This document shows, in pieces, positions 10,753 to 61,492 of a DNA stretch of 64,000 nucleotides. Every line of letters starts with the position of its first letter. The stretch's first letter is position 1. A program made the translations under genes and the position numbers. Source of the DNA: Runella sp. MFBS21 (GTDB lineage: Bacteria; Bacteroidota; Bacteroidia; Cytophagales; Spirosomataceae); assembly GCF_029433105.1 (NCBI RefSeq), contig NZ_JARNTW010000003.1, positions 558,001 through 622,000 on the forward strand, written 5' to 3'. Under the pieces are notes generated by a model, which worked only from the letters and a program-made list of their open reading frames with translations, ran no database searches and had not been told where the DNA came from.

Positions 10753-10768
10753 ACACTCAAGTTTTCTC

Positions 10769-10811
10769 AATCAGGTAGCCGACGAACCGTCAGCTACCTG
10801 ATTTTGTTTTG
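10769..10811 (+). terminator. rho-independent terminator
   Basis: A perfect 11-bp stem AATCAGGTAGC / GCTACCTGATT (10769-10779 and 10793-10803) with a 13-nt loop is followed by a T-rich run, 16 nt after the DUF4175 stop. Confidence 0.9.
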
Positions 10812-10876
10812 GTAAAATCGCCCAGCTCAAATATAAACCAACTACCCTGCTTTTGGTGAGTCAGGATATAGATACG

Positions 10877-12043
10877 ATGTTTTCAAAAGAAGAAATTGAT
10901 TTTATTCAACAGCACCTTCATACGGATACCAGCGCACTCTTCCTAAAATACGGAAAAGACAAAGAATCCTTAATCAAACAGATTGAAGCCCGCCAAAAAT
11001 CACGCACCAAATTGCCTGAATGGTATGCCAATCCTGAGGTGGTATTTCCGCCTGCGCTATCGGTTGAGCAAAGTTCTTCGGAGACAACTGCCCACTACAA
11101 AGCGTCTCTTCTCTCAGGCGACACCCTCATCGACGCAACCGGTGGTATGGGGATTGATAGTTATTTTTTCAGTAAACAATGTGAAGCTGTCATTTATATT
11201 GAACAAAACGAAACTTTGGTAGCGCGTGCTCACCATAATTTTGCCGTTTTGAAAGCCACAAATATTCGTTGCGTACATCAAAATTCTATTGATTTTTTGG
11301 AGAAATTCCCTCAAAAAGTAGACTGTATTTACCTCGACCCAGCGCGCCGCAGTGCCGACCAAAAGCGCGTCGTCAGTCTCGTAGATTGCGACCCCGACGT
11401 TACTAAGCATTTACCATTATTGTTAAACAAAACTCGGCATATATTGCTCAAGGCATCGCCGCTACTTGATCTCAAGCAGACCATCCAGACGCTGCCTTTT
11501 ATTCACACAGTACACGTAGTAGCCGTTGATAATGAATGCAAAGAACTACTATTTGAGATAAGTGATTCTGTTTCGTCGCCAAACATAATTGTAAAAAGTA
11601 TCAATCTCAAATCAGATACCGCCCATCAGTATTTTGAGTTTGATTGGGCACAAGAAACCAACAAGCCAGTATCATTGAGCCCTCCCCTTCGCTACATTTA
11701 TGAGCCCAACGCCGCCATTTTAAAAAGCGGAGCTTTTAAATCAATCGCTCATTCGCTCAATATTTCCAAAATCGCGCCTCATAGCCATTTATATACTTCT
11801 TCGGAATTAGTCCTTGATTTTCCGGGACGTAGCTTTGAGCTTGAAGCGATTTTAAAAGTTGATTCAAAGACACTTAGAGAGCATCTGCCTACTCTCAAAG
11901 CAAATCTCACTGTACGGAATTTTCCAGCTACTACCGACGAACTTCGCAAAAAACTAAAGTTAAAAGACGGGGGTGATGTATATTTGCTGGCCACAACCCT
12001 TCTCAACGGAGACAAAAGGCTTTTGAAATGCCGTAAAGTTTGA
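10877..12043 (+). CDS. class I SAM-dependent methyltransferase, PG_1098/THUMP-like
   Basis: After an N-terminal helical region, LIDATGGMGIDSYFFSKQ forms the SAM-binding glycine motif and DCIYLDPARRSADQKRVV supplies the DPA-type catalytic motif IV. C-terminal PG_1098 ferredoxin-like and THUMP-like parts follow (VRNFPATTDELRKKLKLKDG). This is the domain order of Bacteroidota THUMP-like methyltransferases, predicted RNA modifiers. ATG at 10877 is preferred over the longer TTG frame at 10853, which lies close to the terminator. A hairpin follows at 12044. Confidence 0.85.
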   Translation: MFSKEEIDFIQQHLHTDTSALFLKYGKDKESLIKQIEARQKSRTKLPEWYANPEVVFPPALSVEQSSSETTAHYKASLLSGDTLIDATGGMGIDSYFFSKQCEAVIYIEQNETLVARAHHNFAVLKATNIRCVHQNSIDFLEKFPQKVDCIYLDPARRSADQKRVVSLVDCDPDVTKHLPLLLNKTRHILLKASPLLDLKQTIQTLPFIHTVHVVAVDNECKELLFEISDSVSSPNIIVKSINLKSDTAHQYFEFDWAQETNKPVSLSPPLRYIYEPNAAILKSGAFKSIAHSLNISKIAPHSHLYTSSELVLDFPGRSFELEAILKVDSKTLREHLPTLKANLTVRNFPATTDELRKKLKLKDGGDVYLLATTLLNGDKRLLKCRKV

Positions 12044-31909: not shown

Positions 31910-31996
31910 AGAGGGGTGTCCGAGTGGTTGAAGGAGCACGCCTGGAAAGTGTGTATACGGGCAACCGTATCGAGAGTTCGAATCTCTTCCCCTCTG
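31910..31996 (+). tRNA. tRNA-Ser (anticodon GGA)
   Basis: Acceptor stem AGAGGGG pairs with CCCCTCT and the discriminator is G31996. The anticodon stem CACGC/GTGTG encloses the loop CTGGAAA, anticodon GGA. A long variable arm (TATACGG...CCGTATC) is typical of serine tRNAs, and the T-arm is GAGAGTTCGAATCTCTT. CCA is not encoded. The integrase gene 217 nt downstream points to the tRNA 3' half as the prophage attachment site. Confidence 0.95.
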
Positions 31997-31997
31997 C
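31970..31997 (+). other. probable left attachment site (attL) in the tRNA-Ser 3' end
   Basis: Inferred from the tRNA-then-integrase arrangement. Tyrosine integrases commonly recombine in the T-arm and acceptor 3' half, which regenerates an intact tRNA. The matching attR repeat is not in the window, so the core limits are not defined. Confidence 0.5.
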
Positions 31998-32089
31998 TAG
32001 AAGCTTTTGATGATGAGGTAAATGCGTATCTTAACGCAATGGTTTTCTGCTGATTAGGGTCTCATCCCCAAGCCCCTGCACTACAGTTA

Positions 32090-32147
32090 AGTTTACGGTT
32101 ACGGCAAAATCTGACGGTTACGTCACTTTTTGCCGTAACCGTAAACT
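32090..32147. repeat. 20-bp perfect inverted repeat with nested hairpin
   Basis: Arms at 32090-32109 and 32128-32147 are exact reverse complements, built on TTTACGGTTACGGC. The 18-nt loop contains TGACG-GTTA-CGTCA, itself a perfect 5-bp hairpin. ACGGTTACG thus occurs twice direct and once inverted. It sits between the tRNA attachment region and the integrase gene, a plausible place for integrase arm sites or an operator. The remainder of 31997-32213 shows no gene. Confidence 0.75.
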
Positions 32148-32213
32148 GCATATTTAGCATACTTTTTGCTCTTCCCCTTCACCAATGGGTAGTGTGGCGC
32201 AAGCTCACTACTT

Positions 32214-33491
32214 ATGTACAACATTAAACAGATGTATATTTTATTTTGGTTTCGCAAGTCAGAAGCCAAGACAGAAGTAACTCGCAGAAAAGAAAACCCT
32301 GACTATGATACCCTTGGTAATATTGCTTGCCGAGTCACCATTGATGGGGAAGCAGTTGAAATTGGTAATGTCCACATCGAATGTAGGAAGTCTAACTGGG
32401 ATCCTGAAAACCAGCGACTGAAAGGTTCCAGCAATGAGGTAAAAAAACATAACAAACGAATCAATGAACTCAAGGTACAAATCGAACGAACATTCGACTT
32501 GGTACAGATTGAGTTTGAGCATGTGACGGCCATGCTCGTCAAAGAATTCGTTACCCAAAAACGACTATTTCGCTTCTCTACTCAGCAACTCATTACGGAG
32601 TATTTCAAAGACAGGGCTACTCAGGTAACAGACAAAAAAATCACTCAAGCCACCGTGGATGTCGAAGAAAATTATTCCAAAAACCTCATACGATATTTAG
32701 AAAAAGAAAAACTTACCTCACGACTTCCACGAAGCTTTGACGAAACCATTGTTTCTGGCTTTCGCACCTATTTACTTGATGTAGCGAAGTTTGCTCCCTC
32801 ACATAGTCACAAGCATATAGTGTGGCTCAAAATGTTGTTTAAACATTCGCTCAAAAAGAAGCGCCTCAAATTTAATCCAATTGAGGATTGTGAGATAGGT
32901 ACCGATAACACAAAACCTGACACCACCCACTTGACTGTAGAGCAGCTTTCTAAATTGGCAAGATTTGATTTCTTTGACCTTGCAAAACGAGGATTTATTG
33001 CCCAACAAACAGCCGAAAAATGTGACCTCGAGAGAGACGCATTTGTTTTTAATTGCTTTAGTGGTATGCACCACATCGAATACACCAATAAGTTATTTCA
33101 AATTGAAAATTGTAAAGAAGGAGTGTTTCTGAAAGGATCACGCCAAAAAACTGGTGAAGAGTTTATGGTTAAATTGCTAGAGCCAGCCTTGATGATTCTA
33201 AACAAGTATGGGGGTGAAATTCAGAATCTCCCTATCAAATCCAACCAAAAGCGAAACGACACCTTGAAACAAATCGCTGTTTTAGTGGGCATCCCCGTGG
33301 TTTTGTCAACCAAAATAGCGCGTAAAACATTTACGGACATTGCCCTCAATGAATTGATGATGGAGACAAAGGATGTAGCCACTTGCCTGGGTCTAAAAAA
33401 TGACCGCTATTTGAAGCACTATGCTAGAATTCGAGAGAAAAGGCTAGCCGCGAAAATGATGTCGTGGAATGATATCCTAAAATTTGCTTAA
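32214..33491 (+). CDS. tyrosine site-specific integrase with diverged active site
   Basis: A 425-residue phage integrase. The N-terminal arm-binding region and SAM-like core-binding domain (about 105-225) precede the catalytic domain. Lys312 lies in GSRQKTG, Lys367-xx-Arg370 in TKIARKTF and the nucleophile Tyr403 in KHYARI. The first catalytic Arg, expected in a TGLR-type motif, appears as His286 in FSGMHHIEY. The second motif has Lys instead of His. Activity may be altered, or box I may be misassigned. It is 217 nt from tRNA-Ser and followed by a strong terminator. Confidence 0.88.
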   Translation: MYNIKQMYILFWFRKSEAKTEVTRRKENPDYDTLGNIACRVTIDGEAVEIGNVHIECRKSNWDPENQRLKGSSNEVKKHNKRINELKVQIERTFDLVQIEFEHVTAMLVKEFVTQKRLFRFSTQQLITEYFKDRATQVTDKKITQATVDVEENYSKNLIRYLEKEKLTSRLPRSFDETIVSGFRTYLLDVAKFAPSHSHKHIVWLKMLFKHSLKKKRLKFNPIEDCEIGTDNTKPDTTHLTVEQLSKLARFDFFDLAKRGFIAQQTAEKCDLERDAFVFNCFSGMHHIEYTNKLFQIENCKEGVFLKGSRQKTGEEFMVKLLEPALMILNKYGGEIQNLPIKSNQKRNDTLKQIAVLVGIPVVLSTKIARKTFTDIALNELMMETKDVATCLGLKNDRYLKHYARIREKRLAAKMMSWNDILKFA

Positions 33492-40623: not shown

Positions 40624-43600
40624 CTATTTACTTCCTAAACTCGAAATGGCTCCGATAAGCGCATCCAAACGCCCCGATTGGTTGCTATCACGCACGGCAG
40701 ATTCGACGGCTTTTACCGAATTGGCGGTTTCTCCCAGCCCCATGATGACAAACTTGGTGGCACTGGTGGTGTCTTTGGTGTTGCGGGCGATTTCCTCCAA
40801 CAACTTGAGTTGTTTTTCGCCCTGTTCCCGCGCTTTTTCGCCCTGAGCTTTGGCATCGTCGATGCCTTCTACGTTGGCTCCTCCCGTATCATAGCCGCTT
40901 ACATCAAATTCATCGCCTCCCCCACTGGCTTCCGCAGCAGCCGCTTCAGCCGCCGCCGCTTCCGCTGCTTTCTTGGCTTTTTTGCCTTTTCCGAAGAAAT
41001 TTTTCTCCCAAAAAGGTCGCTCACCTTCGGGTTTGAAAGCCCCGCCATTTTGATAGTATTTTTTACGACGAAGGGGTGCTGGGCGACCTTTTTGTGATTG
41101 GTCGATGATTTCGTCGAGTGTCTCGCGGTGGTAGTCTGTCACGGGACTACTGACAATATACGCCTCGTTGTTTTCGACCTCGGCGACCTTTTTCCCACTG
41201 CGGCTGTCAATCATGTCGATGCCTCCTTCCGAATGCTTGGAACCTCTCAGCACCCCCGCATTTTGAAAGAAACCACCACTGGCAAACTGCGGTTCGGGTT
41301 GGTTTTTGATTTTGGCTACCTGAAGCCCGGTGGCTACGGCAGTCAAGGCCGCAAACACCAAGTTTAAGGGAAACATCCCTGAGGCCAAGGCTTTGATAGT
41401 GGCCAACGCTCCCGATATTAGGGCGGCGGCGATATCGGCTTTTTTCTGGTTGCGGAAGTTCTTCAGCTTGGCCTCTTTCTCCTTGTTCATCGAATCCTTA
41501 TTGATGGCATCAATGTTGGCTTCTTGCTTCTTTTTGGCACTCAGAATAGAGGCATTGTACTTGTCATTGATGCTTTTTTTCTGGGTAGTGAGCTTGTCTT
41601 CGATGGCTTTGGCTTTGTCGGCTCCGAGCTGCTCTTGCATGATGTTGGCCTTCACGGTGGCGAGCTTTTCGTCACGTTCGGCCTTCAATCGCTCCATTTC
41701 TTCTTCGTTGCCTAAGTCACGTGCTTCTTTGATGGCGGCCTGATACTCCAGTTCCATTTTTTGCTTGGCGTTGGTAAAGGCCGTGTTCAAACGGGTAAGC
41801 TCGGCTTTTTCGAGATTGTTGGCCAACAATTCCTGTTCTACGCGGTCGAGTTCGGCGTTTTGCTGGGCTTCGATGTCGGCAAGGATCGCTTGGGTCTCGG
41901 CTTGCGAAGCGGCAATTTTCGTCGTTTTTTCTTTTTCGATATTGGCCAACTCCTTATTGAGCCGTTCTTCGGAAAGCTGCTTGAGAAATGATACCGATGC
42001 TTGAGCCAACTGACCTACGGCCTCGTATTTTTCGGTATTTTCGGCAAGGCGGGTTTGCCACGCCTGCTTTTCGCCCTGCACGATGTTGGAAGCGTGCTGG
42101 ACAAAACCGTTGAGGTCGCCTTGCAGCAAGGCTTTGATGGCGTTGGAGCCTTCTGTCCACTTGGCGGTGCGGGCTTGCTTGAGCTGCTCTTCGACTTCTT
42201 TGATTTGGGCGGCGGTGTTGGTTTCGGCGGTGAGGCGCTCGGCACGGTGCTGGTCTTCGATGGCTTTGATGGCCGCCGCTCGTTGGGTAGTATCGGTGAT
42301 TTTTCGCGCGGCTTCGGCTTTGTCGGCTACTTCTTCGGCGTCTATCTTCTCTTTTAGGAAACGAAGCTCGGTTTCGAGTCGCTCTTTTTTGATGGCGGCT
42401 AGTTTGGTGGCATTGCCTTTGGCTTGCACTTCTTTGAAGTCCAGCAGAGCCATTTCTGCGGCTTTTTCCTGCTCTTGGATAAACTTATTGGCTTCGGCTC
42501 GTTTGGTGGCGGCCTCGGCTTCCGCTTTGGCTTTCTTATCCCGATAGTCGGCTTCCTTAGCCGAAACCTCGGCTATCATTTGGCTATGAAGCAGCTTGAT
42601 TTGGCTGTTTTTGTTGGCTTCACTTGCCAACGAATTCATGACCTCTTCCTTTTTGAGGTCGTATTTTTGGGTAATTGCTACCCGCTCCCGCGTCAGCTCA
42701 TCGGTGATGGTACGAAGGTGCGCTTCAGCTTCGAGTTCGCCTATTTTCTTGATGGCATCTTCATTGGCTTTTTTGACCTCCTCCAAGTGTTTTTCTTCCG
42801 CTTTTTTGGCGGCATCTTTGGCTTTCTTATCCTCCTCACTTTTGGCCTTGGCGTACTTTTGCCCTTGGGTTTTGCCTGCAAACTCGGCGGCCACCCCTGC
42901 ACTGGGATCTTTCCACATTTGAACGACTTCATCAATCCCTTGATTGATGTTGGTCTTCATGGAAGTGATGGTTTTGGTACCGTAAGTTACCGACTCATCC
43001 AAGGCTTTTTTGGCACCTGTCAAATTGCCCTGCACGAGTTTAGCCGCTGCATCGCCCAAGGAGTACAGGGCTAGACCTGCATTTTTAACGGTATCGACCA
43101 AGCCTACCACCAAACTTTTGGCGACCAAAATCACCGAACCGATGGCTTTGCCCACAATGGTAAGCACGGGAATGGAGGCATTCAGAAGGTCAAGAATGGC
43201 GATAAAAACGGGACGGAGGCCGTCGCCGAGGGTTACCATCATCGCATCGAAGTTGTCTCCTAAATTGGAAGTCTTGCCGCCCAAGGTCTCCATCATTTTG
43301 GCGTTTTGACCCGCTACACCAGTCATAGCACCCATGGCTATCATCGCCTTGTAAATGGCCTCTTCGTTGTTTTTTACGACCTGCGTTTGCCCTTTGAAAG
43401 TAAGTGAGATGTTATCCCCCTCTTTTTTGGCTTTGATACCAAACTCTTTGAGCCGCTCAAACTCGGCACCTTGTGCATCAAGTACGGCCTCCACTAATTG
43501 GTCGAAGGTTTTGCCTTGGGAGGAGGCAAGGTCGGCAAGAGCAATCATTTCTTTCTGACTCGGTCGAAGGCCACGGTTCACCATTTTGACGTAGCCTTCC

Positions 43601-44253
43601 GTGAGTTCATCTACGCTAAATGAGGTATTAGCCGCCATGACTTTGATGGCTTCCATGCTTTGTTTGGCGAGCTTTTCGCTGCCCAAGGCCGTGGTCAATA
43701 CCTTTTCGTATTTCTCGAATTTGCCAGTGATGTCGAAAATGGCCTTGCCCACGCCGACGATGAACTGCACGATTTGGAGGGCAATAAAGGCATTGAAAGC
43801 CGCACTCACTTTGCCGACTCCTCCCGAGAAATTGTTCCACAAAGTAGGCTTGGAGGTTTCTTGCAAAGCGGTATTGGTGCCCTTGACTTGTTGCTGTACT
43901 TTTTGCAGCTGGGTTTCGGCGGTTTTGAGCCGACCCACGGCCGCATTGAACGCATTGGTACCGGGCGTCAAGCTTTTGACTTCGGCATTGAGGTGTTTGA
44001 CGTGGTTTTGGAGCTGCCCATAAGTAAGTTGGGTAATGTCCACATTCTTACGATGAGTGGCAATGGCTTTGTCGGTTTCGTCTACCTGCTTCTTTACTTT
44101 TTTCCACTCTTCCGAACCCTCACCCACGGTTTTGGCAACGTCCTTGAGCTGTTTCTGGAGGGCTTTTGATTTGGTCTCAAGCGCGGCCATTTCGGTGTTG
44201 GCCTGCTTGGTTTCGAGCCTCAAATCAATGACGGCTTGTTCTCTTAAATCCAT
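40624..44253 (-). CDS. tail tape measure protein
   Basis: A 1209-residue protein. An N-terminal coiled coil, hydrophobic segments at about 152-180 and 350-400, a very long charged coiled coil (about 460-940), another hydrophobic segment (about 945-985) and a glycine-rich C-terminal region with SEGGIDMIDSRSGKKVAEVE. This is the standard tape-measure architecture. At the usual ~0.15 nm per residue the tail would be roughly 180 nm. It is the largest prophage gene. Confidence 0.9.
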   Translation of the reverse strand: MDLREQAVIDLRLETKQANTEMAALETKSKALQKQLKDVAKTVGEGSEEWKKVKKQVDETDKAIATHRKNVDITQLTYGQLQNHVKHLNAEVKSLTPGTNAFNAAVGRLKTAETQLQKVQQQVKGTNTALQETSKPTLWNNFSGGVGKVSAAFNAFIALQIVQFIVGVGKAIFDITGKFEKYEKVLTTALGSEKLAKQSMEAIKVMAANTSFSVDELTEGYVKMVNRGLRPSQKEMIALADLASSQGKTFDQLVEAVLDAQGAEFERLKEFGIKAKKEGDNISLTFKGQTQVVKNNEEAIYKAMIAMGAMTGVAGQNAKMMETLGGKTSNLGDNFDAMMVTLGDGLRPVFIAILDLLNASIPVLTIVGKAIGSVILVAKSLVVGLVDTVKNAGLALYSLGDAAAKLVQGNLTGAKKALDESVTYGTKTITSMKTNINQGIDEVVQMWKDPSAGVAAEFAGKTQGQKYAKAKSEEDKKAKDAAKKAEEKHLEEVKKANEDAIKKIGELEAEAHLRTITDELTRERVAITQKYDLKKEEVMNSLASEANKNSQIKLLHSQMIAEVSAKEADYRDKKAKAEAEAATKRAEANKFIQEQEKAAEMALLDFKEVQAKGNATKLAAIKKERLETELRFLKEKIDAEEVADKAEAARKITDTTQRAAAIKAIEDQHRAERLTAETNTAAQIKEVEEQLKQARTAKWTEGSNAIKALLQGDLNGFVQHASNIVQGEKQAWQTRLAENTEKYEAVGQLAQASVSFLKQLSEERLNKELANIEKEKTTKIAASQAETQAILADIEAQQNAELDRVEQELLANNLEKAELTRLNTAFTNAKQKMELEYQAAIKEARDLGNEEEMERLKAERDEKLATVKANIMQEQLGADKAKAIEDKLTTQKKSINDKYNASILSAKKKQEANIDAINKDSMNKEKEAKLKNFRNQKKADIAAALISGALATIKALASGMFPLNLVFAALTAVATGLQVAKIKNQPEPQFASGGFFQNAGVLRGSKHSEGGIDMIDSRSGKKVAEVENNEAYIVSSPVTDYHRETLDEIIDQSQKGRPAPLRRKKYYQNGGAFKPEGERPFWEKNFFGKGKKAKKAAEAAAAEAAAAEASGGGDEFDVSGYDTGGANVEGIDDAKAQGEKAREQGEKQLKLLEEIARNTKDTTSATKFVIMGLGETANSVKAVESAVRDSNQSGRLDALIGAISSLGSK

Positions 44254-52944: not shown

Positions 52945-54252
52945 CTATTGGTTAGGGGCGATGACGTTTTGAGTACCTGTGGGGTTGACGTCGAGGGTGG
53001 TCATTTGGGCGTCGATGACTTGGAAAGTGACATCGCGCGGCAACACTCCCGAAATACGAGCCGCCGCAAGAATGGGTTTCATTTGCGCGGCGCGGTCGGT
53101 GGCCGTCATCATTTTGGCGTAATCGTAGGCCAAACGCAGCTCTGAGCCTGAACCTCCGAGCTTCGAGCCGGTGTCGATACCTGCCAAGCTCGGCAGTATT
53201 CCGTGTGAGCTGGCATGGGCGATGTCGGCGGTGGTGGCCACGCGGGTATAGGCTTCGTCGGAGAGGGGATTGTTGAGTGGCTCTATGACGATGCCGCTGA
53301 TTTGCTTGCCACTGTTGTCCATAAAATAACGGGTAAGCAGTGCCTTATTGACGTTATTGACGCCACTGAGCCAACGGTCAAACTGCGCCTGAAGCTCGCC
53401 AAAAGCGGCTTTCTGTTCGGCTTCCTCCGTAATGCCCTGCTGGATAAAATAATCCACGGGAATTTTGATGAGGTACTTGATATTGTAGCCGTTTTTCAAG
53501 CCTGATATGTGAAACTGAGGGATCAGGTTGGAAACTTCCAGCCACTTTTCTCCACCCCACCAACCCGCAAAAGCGTAGAACGGTTGCCCAGGAATAGGCT
53601 CTTTGACGTGGATGATACTTTCGGCGTAGGCCGTAGGATAGGCAGGATCGAAAGCAGGCACGACCACTTTGGGAGCTACGCGGTGATAGGGAGTGCCAAA
53701 CTTATCCGAAAGAAAAAAACGCTGTACTCGGCTCTCTCCCGCTTGGATGCGACCGAGGCGAATCGTGAACATATCTCTTACCGTAGGCTGAGCGAAGAAA
53801 CGGCCATTGCGATAGCTGATGCTGAGGTTGGCGAAGCTGTTCCAAGAAAAAGCCCATTGCCACGATAAGGCTTTGAAAAAGTCTTGAATCTCGGCGGCTT
53901 CCATCCAATCTTGAAGCTCAGGCGAATCGTAAGGCTCATAGAGGGTTTTGCGGTTTTCGGTGATTTTACGGAAAGCCCCAATCCCCCCTCCTACGATGTA
54001 CTTGGTCTGGGTGCGTAGCAACTGCGTGGCTTTGTCGTTGGCCGACATGAGCTTGTGCATCTGGTTGGGCTTATCGTCATGAAACCCCCAAGGGTAATGC
54101 TCAGGGTAGAGTGCCTCGGAGGTATCGTACCAACCAATGGCAGGGGTATGGGCTTGGTCATGGCCAACGAAGCTCAGAAAAGCGGACTGCGCGTCTGCGC
54201 CCGTTTTGCCGTTGGTGGCCAAGGTCAGATTATTAGAAAGGGCTTGAAGCAT
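52945..54252 (-). CDS. phage portal protein
   Basis: About 435 residues from ATG 54252, 5 nt after the upstream stop. Contains QLLRTQTKYIVGGGIGAFRK, WQWAFSWNSFANLSISY (stem/wing region), HVKEPIPGQPFYAFAGWWGG and the C-terminal SLAGIDTGSKLGGSGSELRL motif seen in portal proteins of Bacteroidota phages. It forms the DNA-entry ring of the capsid. Confidence 0.8.
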   Translation of the reverse strand: MLQALSNNLTLATNGKTGADAQSAFLSFVGHDQAHTPAIGWYDTSEALYPEHYPWGFHDDKPNQMHKLMSANDKATQLLRTQTKYIVGGGIGAFRKITENRKTLYEPYDSPELQDWMEAAEIQDFFKALSWQWAFSWNSFANLSISYRNGRFFAQPTVRDMFTIRLGRIQAGESRVQRFFLSDKFGTPYHRVAPKVVVPAFDPAYPTAYAESIIHVKEPIPGQPFYAFAGWWGGEKWLEVSNLIPQFHISGLKNGYNIKYLIKIPVDYFIQQGITEEAEQKAAFGELQAQFDRWLSGVNNVNKALLTRYFMDNSGKQISGIVIEPLNNPLSDEAYTRVATTADIAHASSHGILPSLAGIDTGSKLGGSGSELRLAYDYAKMMTATDRAAQMKPILAAARISGVLPRDVTFQVIDAQMTTLDVNPTGTQNVIAPNQ

Positions 54253-54257
54253 GGGGG

Positions 54258-54629
54258 CTATCGGGATGGGTGGATAATGGCAAACCAATCGGCAGAGCCT
54301 TTGGGACGGTAATGGGTCAATAACTTGATTTTGAGGTTGCGGAAATCGGTCTCTCCCGCCTCGTTTTTGAAGCGCACCCGAATCATGAAGTTGGACTTGA
54401 GATGGGGTGTCTCGCGGGTTTTGGCCGTCTTGGTTCCTCCTTTTTGAACGTCAGGTTTAGGTTGAATTATGATTTGCGTAATATCCTCAAAGGAGCGGGT
54501 GCATTGGCGTTTTTCGGAGGCAGTGCCGTTGGTTTTGTAATACCGAAAATCAGCTACTCGGGGAGTGCCGTCAGGTTCGGTACCGTTGAAAAAATCAAAG
54601 AGTACTGCTTCGCGCTTTAGAGATTGCAT
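54258..54629 (-). CDS. prophage protein of unknown function
   Basis: A 123-residue protein beginning QSLKREAVLFDFFNGTEPDG. It has beta strands and a basic patch (KTNGTASEKRQCTRS), and FRNLKIKLLTHYRPKGSADW near the end. First gene of its unit, preceded by promoter-like copy 4. Not recognised. Confidence 0.55.
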   Translation of the reverse strand: MQSLKREAVLFDFFNGTEPDGTPRVADFRYYKTNGTASEKRQCTRSFEDITQIIIQPKPDVQKGGTKTAKTRETPHLKSNFMIRVRFKNEAGETDFRNLKIKLLTHYRPKGSADWFAIIHPSR

Positions 54630-55063: not shown

Positions 55064-55583
55064 CTGTCTAGGCCCCTATGAAAAGCCAAATACTTGGTAA
55101 TCAATCTACTGTCGTTTTTATTGTTAGCCAACTGTGTGAAAAATATCGCATTTTTTGAATTTTCAAAGTTTCTTTCGACCAAAGATTGTACTATTCTAAC
55201 TGAAAAGTATTTTTCAAATTGTATTTTTTAAGTAAAAAATATGACTAAATAATTACATTATATATAATGATTAAAAATATGAATCACTATCCTTTTAGCT
55301 TTGGCAACAAAAATGAAAAATAAGAAATATGAGCATTTGAACACCGTCGCCTTTTCATTTAAAAAATCACTTCATAAGTCAATCCTACTTTTAGGCATCA
55401 ATTATTACTAAACAATTAATATTCCATTTAAATACAATATTAACGATCTTTTAAATACAAAGGCCTTTAATGCAAAAATTAAAACTACTATTACCAAAAC
55501 TCTCTTTTATCGACAATTTACTATTAAAAAACTCAAAAAAAACACAAAACTAACTTGACACTTTTACAATTCCATAACAAGCA
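55064..55583 (+). other. AT-rich leader of the three-gene cassette
   Basis: 520 nt without a convincing gene, strongly AT-rich. TAGCTTTG at 55296-55303 fits the -7 box and is followed by a possible 32-codon frame at 55313-55411 (KNKKYEHLNTVAFSFKKSLH). TAACTTG at 55551-55557 lies 26 nt before the first cassette gene and may be its -7 box. Whether the small frame is translated is unknown. Confidence 0.4.
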
Positions 55584-56807
55584 ATGAGCACTATATCAAT
55601 AATAGATAGCAATAAAAAATTCACTCCTCTAAGATTTTACACAGAATTTCTAGAGAAGCTATCAGAATTTTACAAAACACACAGGTCAAAAAAAATAATC
55701 TTTAAATTATTTGAAAATGGCGACGAAAAAATTCACGAATCCTATTACAGAATTGACCCAATCACTTTACCACTATTATTAAGCATAATAGAGCAATTAA
55801 GCAAATTCCACAAAGAACCTCTAAATGTTTTACTATACAATAACGCCGCCACTATAAATGTACTTGAATTTTTATATAAATCAGATTTTTTCAAAACCGC
55901 TGGAAATGCAAATGAACACAATACTACTGGCAAAAATATAATAAATATTGACGAAAGATATTTTGGAGATTTTAAAGGAATAAAAATCCGCAGAGACCAC
56001 CTCGTAAGGTCATATTCTATTAAAGAATTCAAAGTTAGCAGAGAGCCTAATTCATATATTGAAGAAATGAAATTAAGGGATTACATACTATCCACAACAA
56101 CATATAAAATTTACAATCATTTCAAGGAATTATTATTCGAAAACGAATCAACCTTAAACAATCACAACTTATACATTGATATTCTATCTGAATTAGTCAC
56201 TAATGGAATATTGCATTCCGGATCAACTACATATGCCATGATGTTTGTAGACAAATATAAAACAAAATTTTCTATATCTGATAACGGCATTGGATTAAAG
56301 GAATCCTTAGACAAAAAAAAAGACCTTTCATTCTATTATACTAAAAATGAATTCCAAGAGAGTATATATCAAACTCTCAAACCATCCATCTTGATTGACA
56401 GTTTCAAACCAATATTTGAAACCTTATTCTACTCCTCCCTTAAAGAACGACGGGGACTTTTTGATTTAATGCTTATTGTAGTCATTAAAAGCAACGGATA
56501 TTTTAGATTACATACTGACAATTGCCAAATAATAGCTTCTAATAGAATTTTCGATCAATTACAAAAATTACACAAATACAGAGAAGAAATATTCAACAAC
56601 CATATGTCTTTTGAATTAAAGAAAATAGAAAATGAAATTTACAGAAATACTACACTAAAATTAAAAGAAATGATAAAAGAATTATTTCTTGAACTTTTCA
56701 AAGATATAATAGAATATTATTCAGAGGACACAAGATATTCATCTTTACGATTCTTCAATGTAAGATTTCGTGGAGTACATATTGAAGTTGAAATCCCTAA
56801 CATATAG
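55584..56807 (+). CDS. GHKL-type ATPase with N-terminal STAS-like region (cassette gene 1)
   Basis: A 407-residue protein. Residues about 1-110 (PLLLSIIEQLSKFHKEPLNV) resemble a STAS-like alpha/beta region. The second half is a histidine-kinase-type ATPase: N box ILSELVTNGILHSG (Glu203, Asn207), G1 ISDNGIGL (Asp233, Gly235, Gly237) and RRGLFDLMLIVVIKSNG as the later glycine block. No phospho-accepting His box is evident, so it is more like an RsbW-type switch ATPase than a kinase. AT-rich codon use differs from the phage genes. Gap to the next gene is 10 nt. Confidence 0.75.
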   Translation: MSTISIIDSNKKFTPLRFYTEFLEKLSEFYKTHRSKKIIFKLFENGDEKIHESYYRIDPITLPLLLSIIEQLSKFHKEPLNVLLYNNAATINVLEFLYKSDFFKTAGNANEHNTTGKNIINIDERYFGDFKGIKIRRDHLVRSYSIKEFKVSREPNSYIEEMKLRDYILSTTTYKIYNHFKELLFENESTLNNHNLYIDILSELVTNGILHSGSTTYAMMFVDKYKTKFSISDNGIGLKESLDKKKDLSFYYTKNEFQESIYQTLKPSILIDSFKPIFETLFYSSLKERRGLFDLMLIVVIKSNGYFRLHTDNCQIIASNRIFDQLQKLHKYREEIFNNHMSFELKKIENEIYRNTTLKLKEMIKELFLELFKDIIEYYSEDTRYSSLRFFNVRFRGVHIEVEIPNI

Positions 56808-56817
56808 ATATATAGAC

Positions 56818-57867
56818 ATGATAATATCTAAAATCACATCACAAAACTTTATTTACTATAATTTACATAGTGAAGAGGTTGTTACATCAAATTTTATTGA
56901 AGAAAATAATAGTGGCATTTATTGTGATAGACTACAAATATCTACTATTCAACGTGTAGTAGAAGACATCGAACAACAAGAAGGTATTAAAAATATAGTA
57001 CTTGACTTCAATAACATTGAAGCAATACAATCCAACTTAGGAAACTATATTATTCCTTTAAAAAACAATGGTTTCGCAATCGTCCTAACCAATATTCTCG
57101 AAAAACTAGTTGCCGATATGGGTTTTTTTTCACTATCAAATCCTAATAATTTACAAAAAAAACAACCCTCAAACGATAGACAATTTGAAACAACAAATAC
57201 TAATCAATCAGTTTTTAAAAAATTCTATTTATTTGAAGCTAACAATAATTTTTTAAATGAAAACTTTATTCCAAATAAAATATTTAACAAACATTTTAAA
57301 AACATTTTAAAAAAATATATAGAGATTAATGAAAAGCCACACACATCCTCTTTTGTATATTTAAAATCATTTGTAAATATAAAAAAATTTATATCTCACG
57401 AAAAATCTCTATCAATTTTATCAATTTACAAACTTGCATTAAAAATCAAAAAAGAATGGGGAAAAGAAATTGAAAAAAAACCTATTTTAATTTGCCAAAG
57501 CTTAAATAGTTCTTATATAGTATCAATACTTTCCAGTTTACTAAAATTAGACATTCTAATATTGGACAAAATTGGGCCTATTAACAAACTTTACACTAGG
57601 CTTGGCAATAGTATCTCAAACGAGAGAAAGTATATAGTAGTATCAGATATGGTCTGCTTAGGTACTGAGGTTAAAATAGTTAAGAATCTTATAGAGTTCA
57701 TAGGAGGAAAGTATTTAGGTAATGTTTCTATCATAAAAGCTGAAACTTTGAAAAAATCAGATATTTCAAGAAAAGATGCAACTTTATCAGTTTTTTCGAT
57801 TGATAAAACTAATAACAAAGAATTAAACTATTACATAACTACTGAACTAGAGTTCACAAATGAATGA
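56818..57867 (+). CDS. STAS-like/phosphoribosyltransferase-like protein (cassette gene 2)
   Basis: About 349 residues from ATG 56818. The N-terminal region LQISTIQRVVEDIEQQEGIK, then FNNIEAIQSNLGNYIIPLKN, resembles a STAS (anti-sigma antagonist) fold. The C-terminal region contains KYIVVSDMVCLGTEVKIVKN, a PRPP-loop-like motif centred on Asp277, as in orotate-type phosphoribosyltransferases; the second conserved acidic residue is replaced by Met. The longer frame from 56770 is unlikely. It overlaps gene 3 by 8 nt. Catalysis is not certain. Confidence 0.7.
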   Translation: MIISKITSQNFIYYNLHSEEVVTSNFIEENNSGIYCDRLQISTIQRVVEDIEQQEGIKNIVLDFNNIEAIQSNLGNYIIPLKNNGFAIVLTNILEKLVADMGFFSLSNPNNLQKKQPSNDRQFETTNTNQSVFKKFYLFEANNNFLNENFIPNKIFNKHFKNILKKYIEINEKPHTSSFVYLKSFVNIKKFISHEKSLSILSIYKLALKIKKEWGKEIEKKPILICQSLNSSYIVSILSSLLKLDILILDKIGPINKLYTRLGNSISNERKYIVVSDMVCLGTEVKIVKNLIEFIGGKYLGNVSIIKAETLKKSDISRKDATLSVFSIDKTNNKELNYYITTELEFTNE

Positions 57868-59680
57868 CATCATAGTACACATCTCTGATTTGCACATATC
57901 AGACCATTATGGCATAGGACGTAATAATAAGAATACTTTTCTAAAAGCCGAATCAAAAAATGAAGAAAATCATGCATTTATAAACTCATTAGTGCATAAA
58001 ATCAAAGAAATACAGCACAGGCACATATATTTAATAGTAACAGGAGATATATCAGACTGTGGCGAAAGTTGCGAATTCGAAATAGCAACTGAACTTATGA
58101 ATAAGCTAATAACGGATTTAAATATCAAAGGTACACTTCAAATACCTGGCGACCACGATATACATAGAGATTCTATAAAAAACGTACTAAGGGAAACAAG
58201 AAAAAGAAGTGAGTCACCTTTCTCAGAATCTACGCTTCAAAACATCTCTCATGATATTACTAAAGCAAAGTTTAAAAATTTTAACACTTTCTATAAATCC
58301 ATCAAAAACGAAGACTTTAACTCAGATAAAATTATTTTCGACTCTCTAGTCACTGAAAATATAGTTTTTCTTGGAATAAACTCTAATCATGAAATCAATC
58401 AAGACGGGGGAAAAGGATTCATTAATACTATTCAATTTGAAAATGAGTTACAAATTATAAAAGAAACATATCCTGGCCTAGAAATTGTTTTATGTATGCA
58501 TCATAACTTGCACGGCGATTATGAGAATACCCAATCTGGACAATGGGATGTTGACAACAGAAGACTTTTGATTAGTGATTTTCAAAAACAAGGTGTTAAG
58601 TGTATATTATCTGGAAATGAGCACACACCAAACTCTAAATCCCTGTCTATATCAGAGATAATAATTAGTGATTCTGGCTCTATTTCATCGGTAAGCAACC
58701 CTCCAGGAAGTTTTAAAATTTATGAAATAATAAAAAATGAAAAAGGAATTTACTTAAAAAATAACCTATATACTTTAGTAAGTACAGGAAGTGCCAATGC
58801 ACTTAAGTTTGGCAATTGGACTACCATTAATATCAGTGAAACAAAAGGCGCAGAAAAAGATTCTTTTATTCTAAAAGACCTTCCAACTCCTGTTTCTCCG
58901 TCCTCAATACAAGATTTACCACATAGTAACGACATTATTGAAATAAATCAAGAAATTAGCAACATAGAGATTCAAAGAAAAGTATATTCAAACCCTATTA
59001 TTCAAGAAAAGTTATATCAAATTATAAAAGAAAGAAAACTTTTCCATCAAGGGCATTTTCATTGTAGTGAAACTTCAAGAACGCACAACTGGATAGACAC
59101 TGCACGATTATTAGAAAAAGAAGAGGATTTGTTTTTTATAAAAAATGCAATTATAGATATAATATCAACATTTAATCTATCCTTCAATTGCAATTTAATA
59201 ATTGGACTTGGATATGAAGGCAATATTATTGCCAGTAAAGCTGCGATAAAATACAACATTCCATATACTTTTTTACCATACGATTATAGGTACAAAGATC
59301 ACCATGAATTTGAAAATAATATAAACTTCGACAATTCAGAGTACAAATATAAAAAAGCAATGATAATAACAGATGTTGTTAACACAGGCAGTACTATTAT
59401 AAATTTAATCAAGGAAAAAGAGAGAACATTCTTTGAAAATACCGAAGAAATTACTATAATATCATTATTTTACACTGGACAAGACGAGCTAAATCATGAT
59501 ATATTAAATCATAAAATCAATGATATTACTACAATGTATCCACCTAAAAAAATTGAACTCTATTCTATCAAAGTAATTAAAATCGAAAGATGTCCTTATG
59601 GAGCAGACTATAAAAATACATGTTTTATCTACAGAGACCAATTAAATCCTGTATATAAATTTTATACTGAAGAAGAATAG
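57860..59680 (+). CDS. metallophosphoesterase-phosphoribosyltransferase fusion (cassette gene 3)
   Basis: A 606-residue protein. The N-terminal calcineurin-like phosphoesterase has HISDLHISD (Asp10, His12), VTGDISD (Asp63), GDHD (Asp98-Asp100, Asn replaced by Asp), MHHN (His214) and GNEH (252-255, first His replaced by Asn). The C-terminal orotate-type phosphoribosyltransferase has IIGLGYEGNIIASKAAIKYN and PRPP loop IITDVVNTGSTIINL (Asp505-Thr512). The fusion suggests turnover of a nucleotide or PRPP-derived compound. Last gene of the cassette. Confidence 0.8.
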   Translation: MNDIIVHISDLHISDHYGIGRNNKNTFLKAESKNEENHAFINSLVHKIKEIQHRHIYLIVTGDISDCGESCEFEIATELMNKLITDLNIKGTLQIPGDHDIHRDSIKNVLRETRKRSESPFSESTLQNISHDITKAKFKNFNTFYKSIKNEDFNSDKIIFDSLVTENIVFLGINSNHEINQDGGKGFINTIQFENELQIIKETYPGLEIVLCMHHNLHGDYENTQSGQWDVDNRRLLISDFQKQGVKCILSGNEHTPNSKSLSISEIIISDSGSISSVSNPPGSFKIYEIIKNEKGIYLKNNLYTLVSTGSANALKFGNWTTINISETKGAEKDSFILKDLPTPVSPSSIQDLPHSNDIIEINQEISNIEIQRKVYSNPIIQEKLYQIIKERKLFHQGHFHCSETSRTHNWIDTARLLEKEEDLFFIKNAIIDIISTFNLSFNCNLIIGLGYEGNIIASKAAIKYNIPYTFLPYDYRYKDHHEFENNINFDNSEYKYKKAMIITDVVNTGSTIINLIKEKERTFFENTEEITIISLFYTGQDELNHDILNHKINDITTMYPPKKIELYSIKVIKIERCPYGADYKNTCFIYRDQLNPVYKFYTEEE

Positions 59681-59995
59681 CTTTTCTGTTTCACCAGCCT
59701 AATCAACAATATCGTAGCAATACAAATTCTTCAACATACTACCTCTTGGCAAGTATTAATATATATCAGGGAGGCAGGACAAATACAATATTTAATTACA
59801 AGAAAAAAAATAGAATAATTTCAACTTTAAAAGAGAAACATATTTTATTTTCCCTGTCTCTAGTATATCTTGTATTACATGTACAAAAGCAAGTTTTACT
59901 TATACTATATTGGGCTCAAGCCCCCATCAGCATAGAAAAAATTCCGTCATTGTTTTAGGTATGCAAAATTAAAATTCGTCCGAAATAAATCTAAT
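59681..59995. other. AT-rich spacer after the cassette
   Basis: 315 nt between the cassette and the terminase stop. A short stem GGGCT/AGCCC lies at 59912-59923. A 70-codon frame here starts with TTG and has no family features. No clear terminator for the cassette was found. Confidence 0.5.
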
Positions 59996-61492
59996 TCACA
60001 ACCAACCAACCGTTGGGATTACCGAGGTAGAGGCACCAAAGCGACCGATGCGACTGCCGTATTTGCCGCAGAGGTAGTAGTCTAGGGTGTCGGATAAGTG
60101 GGTGGCAAGTTCTTGGGGGATTTTGCTTCTTTCCGAATTTTTGTTCTTCGAAAAATCATCATTGATGGGGGCTTGCTGTACGCTGTAGATGAGTGGTTTA
60201 GCTCGCTTTTCGTTGATGCGTACTTTGGGCAAACGGGGGTTTTTCTCCAATAGGATTTCATCAATGAAGAAGTGTTTGTCTTTTCCCTGCCAGTTGAAAG
60301 AATTGACACGAGAGATGACCGTCCAACCCAAATCTCGGATGGTTTCGGAAAAGACATCTAATTGGGTTTGGACAGTATGGGCAGCCTTAGAGGTGGTGTT
60401 GCGGTCACCCCAGAGGTACACTACTTTTTTGCGATGCCCCACGTACTCTTCATTGAACTTGAAGGCTAGCCGCTGTACTAGGTTGGATTTTTCGTTGTTG
60501 GGCTTTACAAACAGTGCATTGAGGCAATGCTCGGTGCCGCTTTTTTCTTGCCAGACGGTGCAGCTGGTGAAGGCGGCGTTGGCATCAATCGACACTTCGA
60601 TGGCAGCGTCGGGATTGTAGTCGTTTTGTTCTTTGTGCCATAGTCCTAGCTCATCGTCGAATTCGTAGGAATAACCGTAGGAAACGTGAAGCTCTGATTT
60701 GAAAGAGGGATAAAAGCCGTCGCCCGTGCCTTCGATGCGCTCGTTCATCATCTCTATTGCAAAGGTGATGGGGTCGAGCAGGTCGTATTGGGTTTGGACG
60801 TAGTCGGGTACTTTTTTGAGCAAGGCGTAATTGTCGTAGGCAGTAGCCGAAGCCCAGTAATATTTGTCGGGTTGGGTTTGGGCTAGCTCCTCGTACTTCC
60901 ATATCCACTGCCCGGTAGTATCGGTAGGAACGGAGGTGAAGAAATAAAAGGCCAGATTGAGAGGGGATGAGATGTCGATGGGGGCGCGGTTGCGAGGGAG
61001 AATGATTTTGTTGACCCAATCTTCTTTGAACCATGCGGCCTCATCAATGAAGTTTTGGGAGTCATTGCCACCGCGATTGGTATTGGGGCGGTCGTAGGAA
61101 CGTAGCTGCAAACAGTAACCTGACTTGAAGCTAATGACATTTTCCCATTTTTTGGGGGCAAACAGGGGACGCGGCCAATCGTCGGGGGGACGGCGGAAAA
61201 GGGTGTAATTGCCCCTACCTGTTTTTGGCTCGTATAAGTGCCAGCCGTACTGCTTCCAGATATCTTCGGACTGCTCGAGGATGATTTCGAGTGCCTGACC
61301 GAAGTGGGTACAGTTGAGCGAGGCTTTGGCACGGGGCAGCTGCCGAGCCGAAAGCCCAATGACGTGGTTGAGGGTGTTGGTCTTGGCGGAGCCACGACCG
61401 CATACGGCGGCTTTAATGCGCTGGGGAGCTTGGAGGAATTTGACCTGCCACGGGTTTAGGGGTATCGTGCCTGATGATTTCGTAGGGGACAT
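59996..61492 (-). CDS. terminase large subunit
   Basis: A 498-residue protein. The ATPase domain has Walker A CGRGSAKT (31-38) and Walker B NFIDEAAWF (Asp150, Glu151). The RNase H-like nuclease has Asp303 in VSIDANAAFT, Asp363 in LWGDRN and Asp468/Asp471 in HLSDTLDYYL. It packages DNA into the prohead with the small subunit encoded upstream. The 3' side abuts the inserted cassette, separating it from the portal unit. Confidence 0.93.
   Translation of the reverse strand: MSPTKSSGTIPLNPWQVKFLQAPQRIKAAVCGRGSAKTNTLNHVIGLSARQLPRAKASLNCTHFGQALEIILEQSEDIWKQYGWHLYEPKTGRGNYTLFRRPPDDWPRPLFAPKKWENVISFKSGYCLQLRSYDRPNTNRGGNDSQNFIDEAAWFKEDWVNKIILPRNRAPIDISSPLNLAFYFFTSVPTDTTGQWIWKYEELAQTQPDKYYWASATAYDNYALLKKVPDYVQTQYDLLDPITFAIEMMNERIEGTGDGFYPSFKSELHVSYGYSYEFDDELGLWHKEQNDYNPDAAIEVSIDANAAFTSCTVWQEKSGTEHCLNALFVKPNNEKSNLVQRLAFKFNEEYVGHRKKVVYLWGDRNTTSKAAHTVQTQLDVFSETIRDLGWTVISRVNSFNWQGKDKHFFIDEILLEKNPRLPKVRINEKRAKPLIYSVQQAPINDDFSKNKNSERSKIPQELATHLSDTLDYYLCGKYGSRIGRFGASTSVIPTVGWL

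What the first reader, a model, noticed from the sequence alone, without database searches (positions are those of the whole stretch)
55584..59680. Undescribed three-gene GHKL-ATPase / STAS-PRTase / phosphoesterase-PRTase cassette inside a prophage
Three tightly packed plus-strand genes (10-nt gap, then 8-nt overlap) interrupt the minus-strand late operon between terminase and portal-side genes. They are visibly more AT-rich than the phage genes. Seen directly: an N-box/G1 ATPase without a clear phospho-His box; a STAS-like region joined to a PRPP-loop motif; and a calcineurin-like phosphoesterase fused to a second PRPP-loop domain, with substitutions GDHD and GNEH in two metal motifs. Partner-switch proteins (RsbW/STAS type) are established regulators; combining them with two orotate-type PRTases and a phosphoesterase matches no named system I know. 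Inference: the ATPase/STAS pair senses a signal and controls a nucleotide- or PRPP-consuming effector, perhaps superinfection defence carried by the prophage.
Basis: partly seen in the sequence, partly recalled or inferred. Interest (0 to 1): 0.9.

Follow-up and report, generated by a model that had tools for sequence, protein, structure and literature searches.

The report
Mobile three-gene switch-and-enzyme cassette in prophage
A prophage in a Bacteroidota genome carries a rare, mobile three-gene cassette, kept together in distant bacteria, that pairs a stress-switch ATPase with two enzyme-like proteins and looks like a new relative of a recently described anti-phage switch system.

Summary
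Three AT-rich genes (GC 0.28; phage flanks 0.52) lie between terminase and portal-like genes of a prophage at tRNA-Ser. It is a real unit: of 10 other loci with full-length gene C, 9 hold A, B and C in the same order; the tenth starts inside B at a contig end. Eight are Bacteroidota, two are distant Bacillota-type MAGs. Profile comparisons suggest A = STAS-like + GHKL; B = STAS-like (weak) + orotate-PRTase-like; C = metallophosphoesterase + orotate-PRTase-like. The closest known design is VapKSC/CapKS (EMBO J 2026): a STAS-GHKL kinase frees an effector by phosphorylating a STAS partner. Gene A matches such proteins over both domains (hhalign E 1e-10). Two hallmarks differ: the acceptor-serine position is Asn in B (10 of 10), and the effector is no PIN RNase. 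PADLOC defence genes lie at 3 of the 5 loci where I scanned chosen flanking genes. I read it as a new variant of STAS-GHKL-controlled immunity, with B's PRTase-like domain clamping C's. Anti-phage activity, chemistry and trigger are inferred. Structure prediction never ran.

The parts
55584..56807 (+). gene A, 407 aa: N-terminal STAS-like region (about residues 20-105) plus GHKL ATPase domain
   Evidence: hhalign of the 10-sequence alignment against four CapK/VapK-type proteins: E 1.3e-10, score 81.8, best of 40 column-shuffled controls 18.8, profile columns 24-327; against 11 GHKL domains of other proteins E 6e-13
56190..56204 (+). gene A N-box ELVTN (E203 to N207)
   Evidence: E203 and N207 invariant in 10 of 10
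56280..56294 (+). gene A G1 box DNGIG (D233 to G237)
   Evidence: D233, G235, G237 invariant in 10 of 10
56818..57867 (+). gene B, 349 aa: N-terminal STAS-like region (weak) plus C-terminal orotate-PRTase-like domain
   Evidence: PRTase part against PyrE alignment: score 32.4 over 72 columns, best of 50 shuffles 18.3, hhalign probability 38%; N-terminal part 22.4 against the kinase set (shuffle max 18.3) and 17.6 against the CapS/VapS-type set (shuffle max 14.2)
57034..57036 (+). gene B Asn73, at the place of the acceptor Ser of CapS/VapS by ungapped reading from the LDF motif
   Evidence: Asn in 10 of 10; the four CapS/VapS-type sequences have Ser there by my reading
57637..57669 (+). gene B PRPP-type loop VVSDMVCLGTE
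   Evidence: D277, C280, G282, E284 invariant in 10 of 10; first acidic residue replaced by Ser (8) or Ala (2)
57860..59680 (+). gene C, 606 aa: calcineurin-like metallophosphoesterase plus orotate-PRTase-like domain
   Evidence: PF00149 34.1 bits, over its cut-off 21.5; PF00156 24.6 bits, just under 26.3; profile hit to 2xmo (Lmo2642) 2.5e-11; PRTase part against PyrE 32.8 over 119 columns, best of 50 shuffles 19.9, hhalign probability 36%
57860..58759 (+). gene C phosphoesterase domain (about residues 1-300): DLH, GD, GDHD, HH, GNEH
   Evidence: D10, H12, D63, H99, H214, H255 invariant in 11 of 11; D98 and N253 in 9 of 11, canonical N and H in 2 of 11
59027..59677 (+). gene C orotate-PRTase-like domain (about residues 390-606), PRPP-type loop IITDVVNTGST at 59363-59395
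   Evidence: D505, V506, V507, G510 and C578, C588 invariant in 11 of 11
55070..59900 (.). AT-rich inserted block
   Evidence: 200-nt GC profile; terL and the portal-like gene only about 420-610 nt apart in 6 of 7 loci with a homologous terL
59996..61492 (-). flanking terminase large subunit gene (context)
52945..54288 (-). flanking portal-like gene (context, name inferred from order)
31910..33491 (+). tRNA-Ser and integrase-like gene (32214-33491): left end of the prophage (context)
   Evidence: ARAGORN; 18-bp tRNA 3' end repeated 41 kb away; Arm-DNA-bind_5 5e-4, just below its cut-off

Best explanation
A mobile three-gene conflict module, most likely anti-phage, built on the STAS-GHKL switch. 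Shown by sequence: gene A is a STAS-like + GHKL protein of CapK/VapK architecture; gene B joins a STAS-like region (weak) to an orotate-PRTase-like domain; gene C joins a metallophosphoesterase to a second orotate-PRTase-like domain; the three recur as one unit. Inferred: A is the sensor, B the clamp, C the effector. B and C pair through their PRTase-like domains (orotate PRTases work as dimers: recalled, from no call), which keeps C's enzyme off. When infection or damage changes A, A takes B by its STAS region, and C is freed to act on a nucleotide or PRPP-linked substrate and stop growth or phage replication. Because the serine that CapK/VapK phosphorylate is an invariant Asn in B and A lacks a clear third glycine box, I think the hand-over is driven by ATP binding or partner swapping rather than by phosphorylation of that site.
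For: Three-gene order kept in 9 of 10 other loci with full-length C, tenth cut by a contig end. Pairwise distances of A, B and C are correlated: r 0.93-0.96 over 10 loci, 0.64-0.83 over 8 Bacteroidota loci. Gene A against CapK/VapK-type proteins E 1.3e-10 over STAS and GHKL. Of the 20 genomes with non-module hits of gene A's profile I read the neighbours of two, chosen for short open frames: one is a VapKSC-type operon (L117: GHKL, STAS-like, PIN), the other a CapKS-type pair (L108). PRTase-like domains in B and C. Metal and loop residues invariant. PADLOC neighbours: HamA, PtuA/PDC-M01A and PDC-M01B at L031, Upx (partial) at L039, DpdF-like at L040. Recombinase genes at 5 of 10 other loci. 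VapKSC protects against a phage (PMC13373217, section 13 read).
Against: No phage challenge or biochemistry. The STAS call in B is weak (17.6 against shuffle maximum 14.2; 22.4 against 18.3; hhalign probability 1-3%), A's STAS part does not stand out against the CapS/VapS-type set (14.5, shuffle maximum 14.4), and A's and B's N-termini do not match each other (score 9.0, not above shuffles). PyrE matches have hhalign probabilities of only 36-38%. The GHKL part scores higher with 11 generic GHKL domains (87.4) than with the CapK/VapK-type set (71.3), so the kinship rests on the STAS part and architecture; two of the four kinase-type proteins were themselves found with A's profile, so that test is not independent. 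Pfam finds no HATPase in L108's protein. The aromatic that I equate with the ssDNA contact of CapK/VapK is aromatic in 3 of 10 A proteins, Arg in 7 (my mapping). No full-length relative of C in phages, plasmids or viral contigs. Only chosen flanking genes were scanned, with no control rate. B-C pairing is untested.
Confidence: 0.5

Rival explanations
1. A phospho-switch of the VapKSC kind: A is a true Ser/Thr kinase activated by ssDNA and phosphorylates B at another site, freeing C.
For: N-box and G1 residues invariant; architecture of A; published mechanism of VapKSC.
Against: Expected acceptor position is Asn in 10 of 10; third glycine box not recognisable; the residue equated with the ssDNA-contact aromatic is aromatic in 3 of 10 only.
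Confidence: 0.2
2. B and C form a signal-making enzyme: the two PRTase-like domains use PRPP to make an unusual nucleotide, the phosphoesterase trims or removes it, and A controls or reads it, as proposed for the Ter pathway.
For: Two PRTase-like domains with a phosphoesterase; nearest solved phosphoesterase by profile is Lmo2642; Ter precedent (PMC7824862, passage seen); a thyX gene overlaps or abuts gene C in both Bacillota-type loci.
Against: The first acidic residue of the PRPP loop is lost in B (10 of 10) and in C (11 of 11); no separate effector gene in the cassette.
Confidence: 0.2
3. A metabolic or stress regulator that senses PRPP or nucleotides (PRTase domains as sensors, as in PurR; recalled) and is merely carried by mobile elements.
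For: Degenerate PRPP loops; thyX next to the Bacillota-type loci.
Against: Rare (2 of 395 phylum genomes including its own), often with recombinase or defence genes nearby; no DNA-binding family stands out in Pfam (one C-type member has HTH_psq at 0.012).
Confidence: 0.1

Closest known systems
VapKSC (PMC13373217, EMBO J 2026; passages and section 13 read)
   Same: three-gene operon; first protein STAS + GHKL; second protein with a STAS or STAS-like region and a C-terminal part; third an enzyme; 36% of vapKSC operons near immune genes in that paper
   Different: effector is phosphoesterase-PRTase, not PIN RNase; second protein has a PRTase-like domain; acceptor Ser/Thr position is an invariant Asn
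CapK + CapS (same paper, passages read)
   Same: STAS-GHKL protein paired with a STAS protein beside immune genes; CapK carries an HTH, and in the Bacillota-type cassettes a separate HTH-type gene lies upstream of A
   Different: CapS is a DNA-binding repressor (wHTH); no HTH family found in B
DS-8 and DS-9 anti-phage phosphoesterases (DefensePredictor, PMC13092281; passages read)
   Same: calcineurin-like phosphoesterase; gene C hits NCBIfam DS9_1_antiphage at 7.3e-16
   Different: 58.1 bits against a cut-off of 420; DS-9's partner is a HAD phosphatase and DS-8 has NACHT; no PRTase is mentioned for either in the passages I read
PyrE orotate phosphoribosyltransferase
   Same: C aligns over 119 columns from the hood to the PRPP loop, B over 72 columns around the loop
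   Different: far below the TIGR00336 cut-off; first acidic loop residue lost; fused to other domains
Ter system (passage in PMC7824862)
   Same: PRTases combined with phosphoesterases in a phage-resistance setting
   Different: HAD-type phosphoesterases; TerB/TerC/TerD are not among the three genes (not searched for nearby)

Membership tests
VapKSC | first gene: STAS + GHKL protein | tested here: met
   hhalign E 1.3e-10 over profile columns 24-327, score 81.8 against a best of 18.8 in 40 shuffles; comparison set named by architecture, not from the published sequences
VapKSC | second gene: STAS protein with conserved Ser/Thr acceptor | tested here: not met
   Asn in 10 of 10 at the equated column; STAS itself weak
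VapKSC | third gene: PIN (VapC) RNase | tested here: not met
   Pfam: Metallophos and Pribosyltran, no PIN
VapKSC | ssDNA-contact aromatic in the STAS of the kinase | tested here: inconclusive
   aromatic in 3 of 10, Arg in 7 of 10; position mapped by me, not from the published sequence
VapKSC | protection against phage | not testable with these tools
   needs plaque assay
CapK-CapS | STAS-wHTH repressor partner | tested here: not met
   B-type proteins show no HTH family in Pfam; the C-terminal part matches PyrE
GHKL ATPases | N-box Glu/Asn and G1 DxGxG | tested here: met
   10 of 10; HATPase_c in 7 of 10 members at E up to 1, best 0.0037; 18 bits for gene A against a cut-off of 26.4
GHKL ATPases | G2 glycine motif of the ATP lid | tested here: inconclusive
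   RxG(L/I)F at the likely place in 8 of 10, no glycine there in the 2 Bacillota-type loci
Calcineurin-like metallophosphoesterases | Pfam cut-off and metal motifs | tested here: met
   PF00149 34.1 bits over 21.5 for gene C; PF00149 listed for 5 of 11 members at E up to 1; six ligand residues in 11 of 11, two substituted (N to D, H to N) in 9 of 11
DS9_1 anti-phage phosphoesterase (NCBIfam NF053862) | curated score cut-off 420 bits | tested here: not met
   58.1 bits
PyrE orotate PRTase | TIGR00336 cut-off 106.8 bits | tested here: not met
   gene C 19.9 bits and 22.9 bits at its locus; gene B not listed for TIGR00336
Orotate-PRTase-like fold | profile similarity over the core with the PRPP loop in register | tested here: met
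   C 32.8 (119 columns) and B 32.4 (72 columns) against best of 50 shuffles 19.9 and 18.3; three other parts of the proteins 9.8-15.2; hhalign probabilities 36% and 38%; no structure was predicted
Active PRTase | two adjacent acidic residues in the PRPP loop (recalled as the usual pattern; some PRTase families differ) | tested here: not met
   only the second is kept, B 10 of 10, C 11 of 11

The most novel reading that the evidence does not exclude
An undescribed immune system in which a STAS-GHKL sensor controls, without the usual serine phosphorylation, a heteromeric pair of orotate-PRTase-like proteins, one fused to a phosphoesterase, so that infection switches on destruction or making of a PRPP-linked nucleotide. 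It would be a nucleotide-metabolism effector under partner switching, found across two phyla and carried by a prophage as a shield against rivals.
Probability: 0.3. Interest if true: 0.87.

Novelty: new variant of a known kind. Interest (0 to 1): 0.72.

Why it matters
STAS-GHKL switches are known from sigma-factor control and, since the 2026 paper, from CapKS and VapKSC immunity (PMC13373217). This cassette would show that the same switch drives a quite different effector: two PRTase-like domains and a phosphoesterase. If the invariant Asn means that the switch no longer uses phosphorylation at that site, it would be a natural test of how partner switching works without it. PRTase domains appear in the figure key of validated systems in the DefensePredictor paper (PMC13092281, passage seen), but I saw no mechanism for them; a compact three-gene module would make one testable.

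Tried and rejected
PADLOC gave nothing for A, B or C. The first genome-contig scan, with C alone, found nothing. No relative of C in phages or plasmids (Bacillota-type C). Viral-contig scans with C, B, A and the two CapK/VapK-type proteins found none; the scan with the Bacillota-type C found two short N-terminal matches, not followed. These scans rest on short peptide patterns. First PyrE comparisons were wrong because my script read wrong frames; only one search is used for PyrE. B against C: whole profiles E 0.029, domain against domain 24.8, best of 20 shuffles 17.8. A against B: nothing. A4 found no solved structure at E up to 1. For A, the top PDB row (4xhp) has domain E-values of 5 to 9 and was set aside; 9p6i (histidine kinase, E 0.026) agrees with GHKL. 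A motif search for integrases found one; Pfam did better. Rows dropped before counts: 17 of 26 loci (whose pattern list was itself capped: 'there are more') and 21 of 23 genomes match only part of C; likewise 35 of 36 genomes (part of C) and 20 of 21 (part of A). L043 was left out of the A and B alignments and of the distance test. One plasmid hit (Streptococcus, half-length) was not used. Of the six stretches only L031 was analysed; L129 was not. Considered and rejected: artefact of ORF calling (order recurs); Ter system (no Ter gene among the three); plain two-component kinase (no other histidine-kinase domain in Pfam).


Full report
What is there. Three + strand genes at 55584-56807 (A), 56818-57867 (B) and 57860-59680 (C). 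B's homologues start at, or two residues before, the Met that aligns with ATG 56818, giving a 10-nt gap and an 8-nt overlap. The block from about 55.07 to 59.9 kb has GC near 0.28, against 0.516 in the phage flanks and 0.422 in the host part. It stands between a - strand terminase gene (matches annotated terminases at 24.7%, 2e-18) and a portal-like gene (name inferred from order; PHROGs silent).

The carrier is a prophage. An integrase-like gene (32214-33491; only an Arm-DNA-bind_5 match just below its cut-off) follows tRNA-Ser (31910-31997). The last 18 nt of the tRNA recur 41 kb away, 9013-9030 nt past the window's end. I read eight stretches from relatives. In 6 of the 7 that hold both genes, terL and the portal-like gene are about 420-610 nt apart without the cassette; in the seventh (G463, closest terL at 51%) other - strand genes fill the gap. 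In the eighth, a genus relative, a 251-bp remnant of the same terL end (91% identity) abuts a different AT-rich gene. The site looks like a cargo spot.

It is a conserved unit. Of these 10, 9 hold A, B and C in the same order and strand; the tenth (L043) begins at a contig end inside B. Organisms named in the records: Chishuiella, Sphingobacterium, Chryseobacterium, Flavivirga, Flavobacterium, Bacteroidetes bacterium UKL13-3, a Flavobacteriales MAG, and, at about 24% identity, a Lachnospiraceae MAG and a Bacilli MAG; G308 is unnamed. A full-length C was found in no other of 291 order genomes, and gene B in no other of 395 class genomes, so it is rare in these samples. Distances among loci are correlated between the genes: ten loci r 0.96 (A-B), 0.93 (A-C), 0.96 (B-C), with at most 1 of 10000 permutations as high; the eight Bacteroidota of that set (window included, L043 left out) 0.83, 0.64, 0.80, with 0, 41 and 2 of 10000.

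It travels. Site-specific recombinase genes lie in the fetched flanks of 5 of 10 other loci (L031, L038, L039, L040 tyrosine type; L044 serine type, two genes; only genes I picked were scanned). I scanned 8 picked flanking genes from 5 of the 10 loci with PADLOC: 5 genes at 3 loci matched (L031 HamA, PtuA/PDC-M01A, PDC-M01B; L039 Upx, partial; L040 DpdF-like); the second gene at L039 and the genes at L041 and L042 (the latter a tRNA-synthetase-type protein) did not; flanks of L037, L038, L043, L044 and L045 were not scanned. There is no control rate for these counts. The cassette is AT-richer than its flanks in 10 of 11 loci.

Gene A. Pfam sees GHKL weakly (0.004; 7 of 10 members). Profile comparison is clear: E 1e-13 (GHKL part) and 6e-13 (whole) against 11 other GHKL domains, and E 1.3e-10 against four STAS-GHKL-type proteins, running through the STAS region. 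The STAS region alone scores 25.6 against a best of 18.8 in 40 shuffles (probability 7%). The four come from L117 (GHKL, STAS-like, PIN: a VapKSC-type operon), L128 (Deinococcus gobiensis plasmid, HTH, ATPase, STAS-like DUF4325, PIN), L108 and L127 (GHKL-type plus a STAS-type protein with a longer C-terminus, CapKS type by my reading). I named them by architecture, not by the published sequences. L108 and L117 were found with A's own profile, picked as two of 20 genomes; so were the 11 generic GHKL domains. Pfam shows HATPase_c in L117's protein and none in L108's.

Gene B. No Pfam match for the window's protein. Its C-terminal half matches PyrE (32.4, best of 50 shuffles 18.3, 72 columns, probability 38%) with VVSDMVCLGTE over VVLEDLISTGGSS. 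Its N-terminal part resembles STAS weakly. At the place of the acceptor serine, read without gaps from the LDF motif, all ten have Asn; hhalign itself puts a gap nearby, so the equation is likely, not certain.

Gene C. Phosphoesterase plus PRTase, nearest solved relative Lmo2642 (2.5e-11). Six metal-ligand residues are invariant; D98 and N253 replace Asn and His in the nine Bacteroidota loci only. The PRTase part matches PyrE at 32.8 (best of 50 shuffles 19.9, 119 columns, probability 36%). Both PRPP loops keep the second acidic residue and have lost the first, so catalysis is open.

How it may work. VapKSC (PMC13373217, section 13 read) is the guide: the model there is that the STAS-GHKL kinase frees the toxin from the STAS antitoxin, and the operon protects against phage Bas42. 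Here A would be the sensor, B the clamp and C the effector. The new point is that B and C share an orotate-PRTase-like domain, a family that acts as dimers (recalled), so a B-C pair is the natural way to hold C. Loss of the acceptor serine and of a clear third glycine box in A suggests a switch without that phosphorylation. Steps shown by sequence: domains (STAS in B only weakly), conservation, unit, mobility. Steps inferred: sensing, clamping, release, nucleotide effect, defence.

What is known. Literature searches in the held library. Judged by titles, abstract starts and the passages I opened, none describes this combination; 'STAS domain' with GHKL and phosphoribosyltransferase gave no paper. 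The library lacks most subscription papers. The DefensePredictor paper (PMC13092281, passages read) has phosphoesterases DS-8 and DS-9 and lists PRTase in a figure key that I could not resolve further, so one of its validated systems with a PRTase could be related; this was not excluded.

Verdict. A real, rare, mobile, three-gene module; a new variant of the STAS-GHKL-controlled immune kind, with function and mechanism inferred.

Noticed in passing
L044 8266-8910, L045 4453-5103; L044 3999-4334, L045 283-633: In both Bacillota-type loci a thyX gene (Thy1, 2e-55 and 7e-53) overlaps or directly abuts the end of gene C, depending on its start codon, and a short HTH-type gene (HTH_3 5e-11 at L044; L045's looks alike, not scanned) precedes gene A, so the unit there may have five genes.
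   Followed up: partly
L087 9052-9998 (G477:C12): A remnant of the same terL 3' end (251 bp, 91%) lies beside an AT-rich 306-aa gene without a PADLOC or Pfam match: another possible cargo at the same spot.
   Followed up: partly
9013 to 16113 nt past the window's end (L130): A second integrated element with its own tyrosine integrase follows the prophage in tandem; copies of the tRNA-Ser 3' end lie at each side (18 bp and 14 bp), and a 64-bp near-repeat of window 32150-32213 lies just beyond.
   Followed up: partly
L130 6726-8920 and 9367-10221: AT-rich + strand genes (564, 163 and 284 aa) at the far end of the prophage and in the next element; Pfam gave DUF5894 for the first and nothing for the third; possible further cargo.
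   Followed up: partly
L117 1102-2886; L128 2962-4808: VapKSC-type operons in a Bacteroidota genome and on Deinococcus gobiensis plasmid P5, the latter with an HTH gene upstream.
   Followed up: partly
e.g. L003, L005, L012: The phosphoesterase domain of C has partial matches in open frames of about 1050-1600 aa in many Bacteroidota genomes of one family; their other domains were not examined.
   Followed up: no
window 41001-43000 and 8001-11000: Strong AT skew (to -0.46 and +0.52) in the composition table, the first inside the 1209-aa gene 40624-44253.
   Followed up: no
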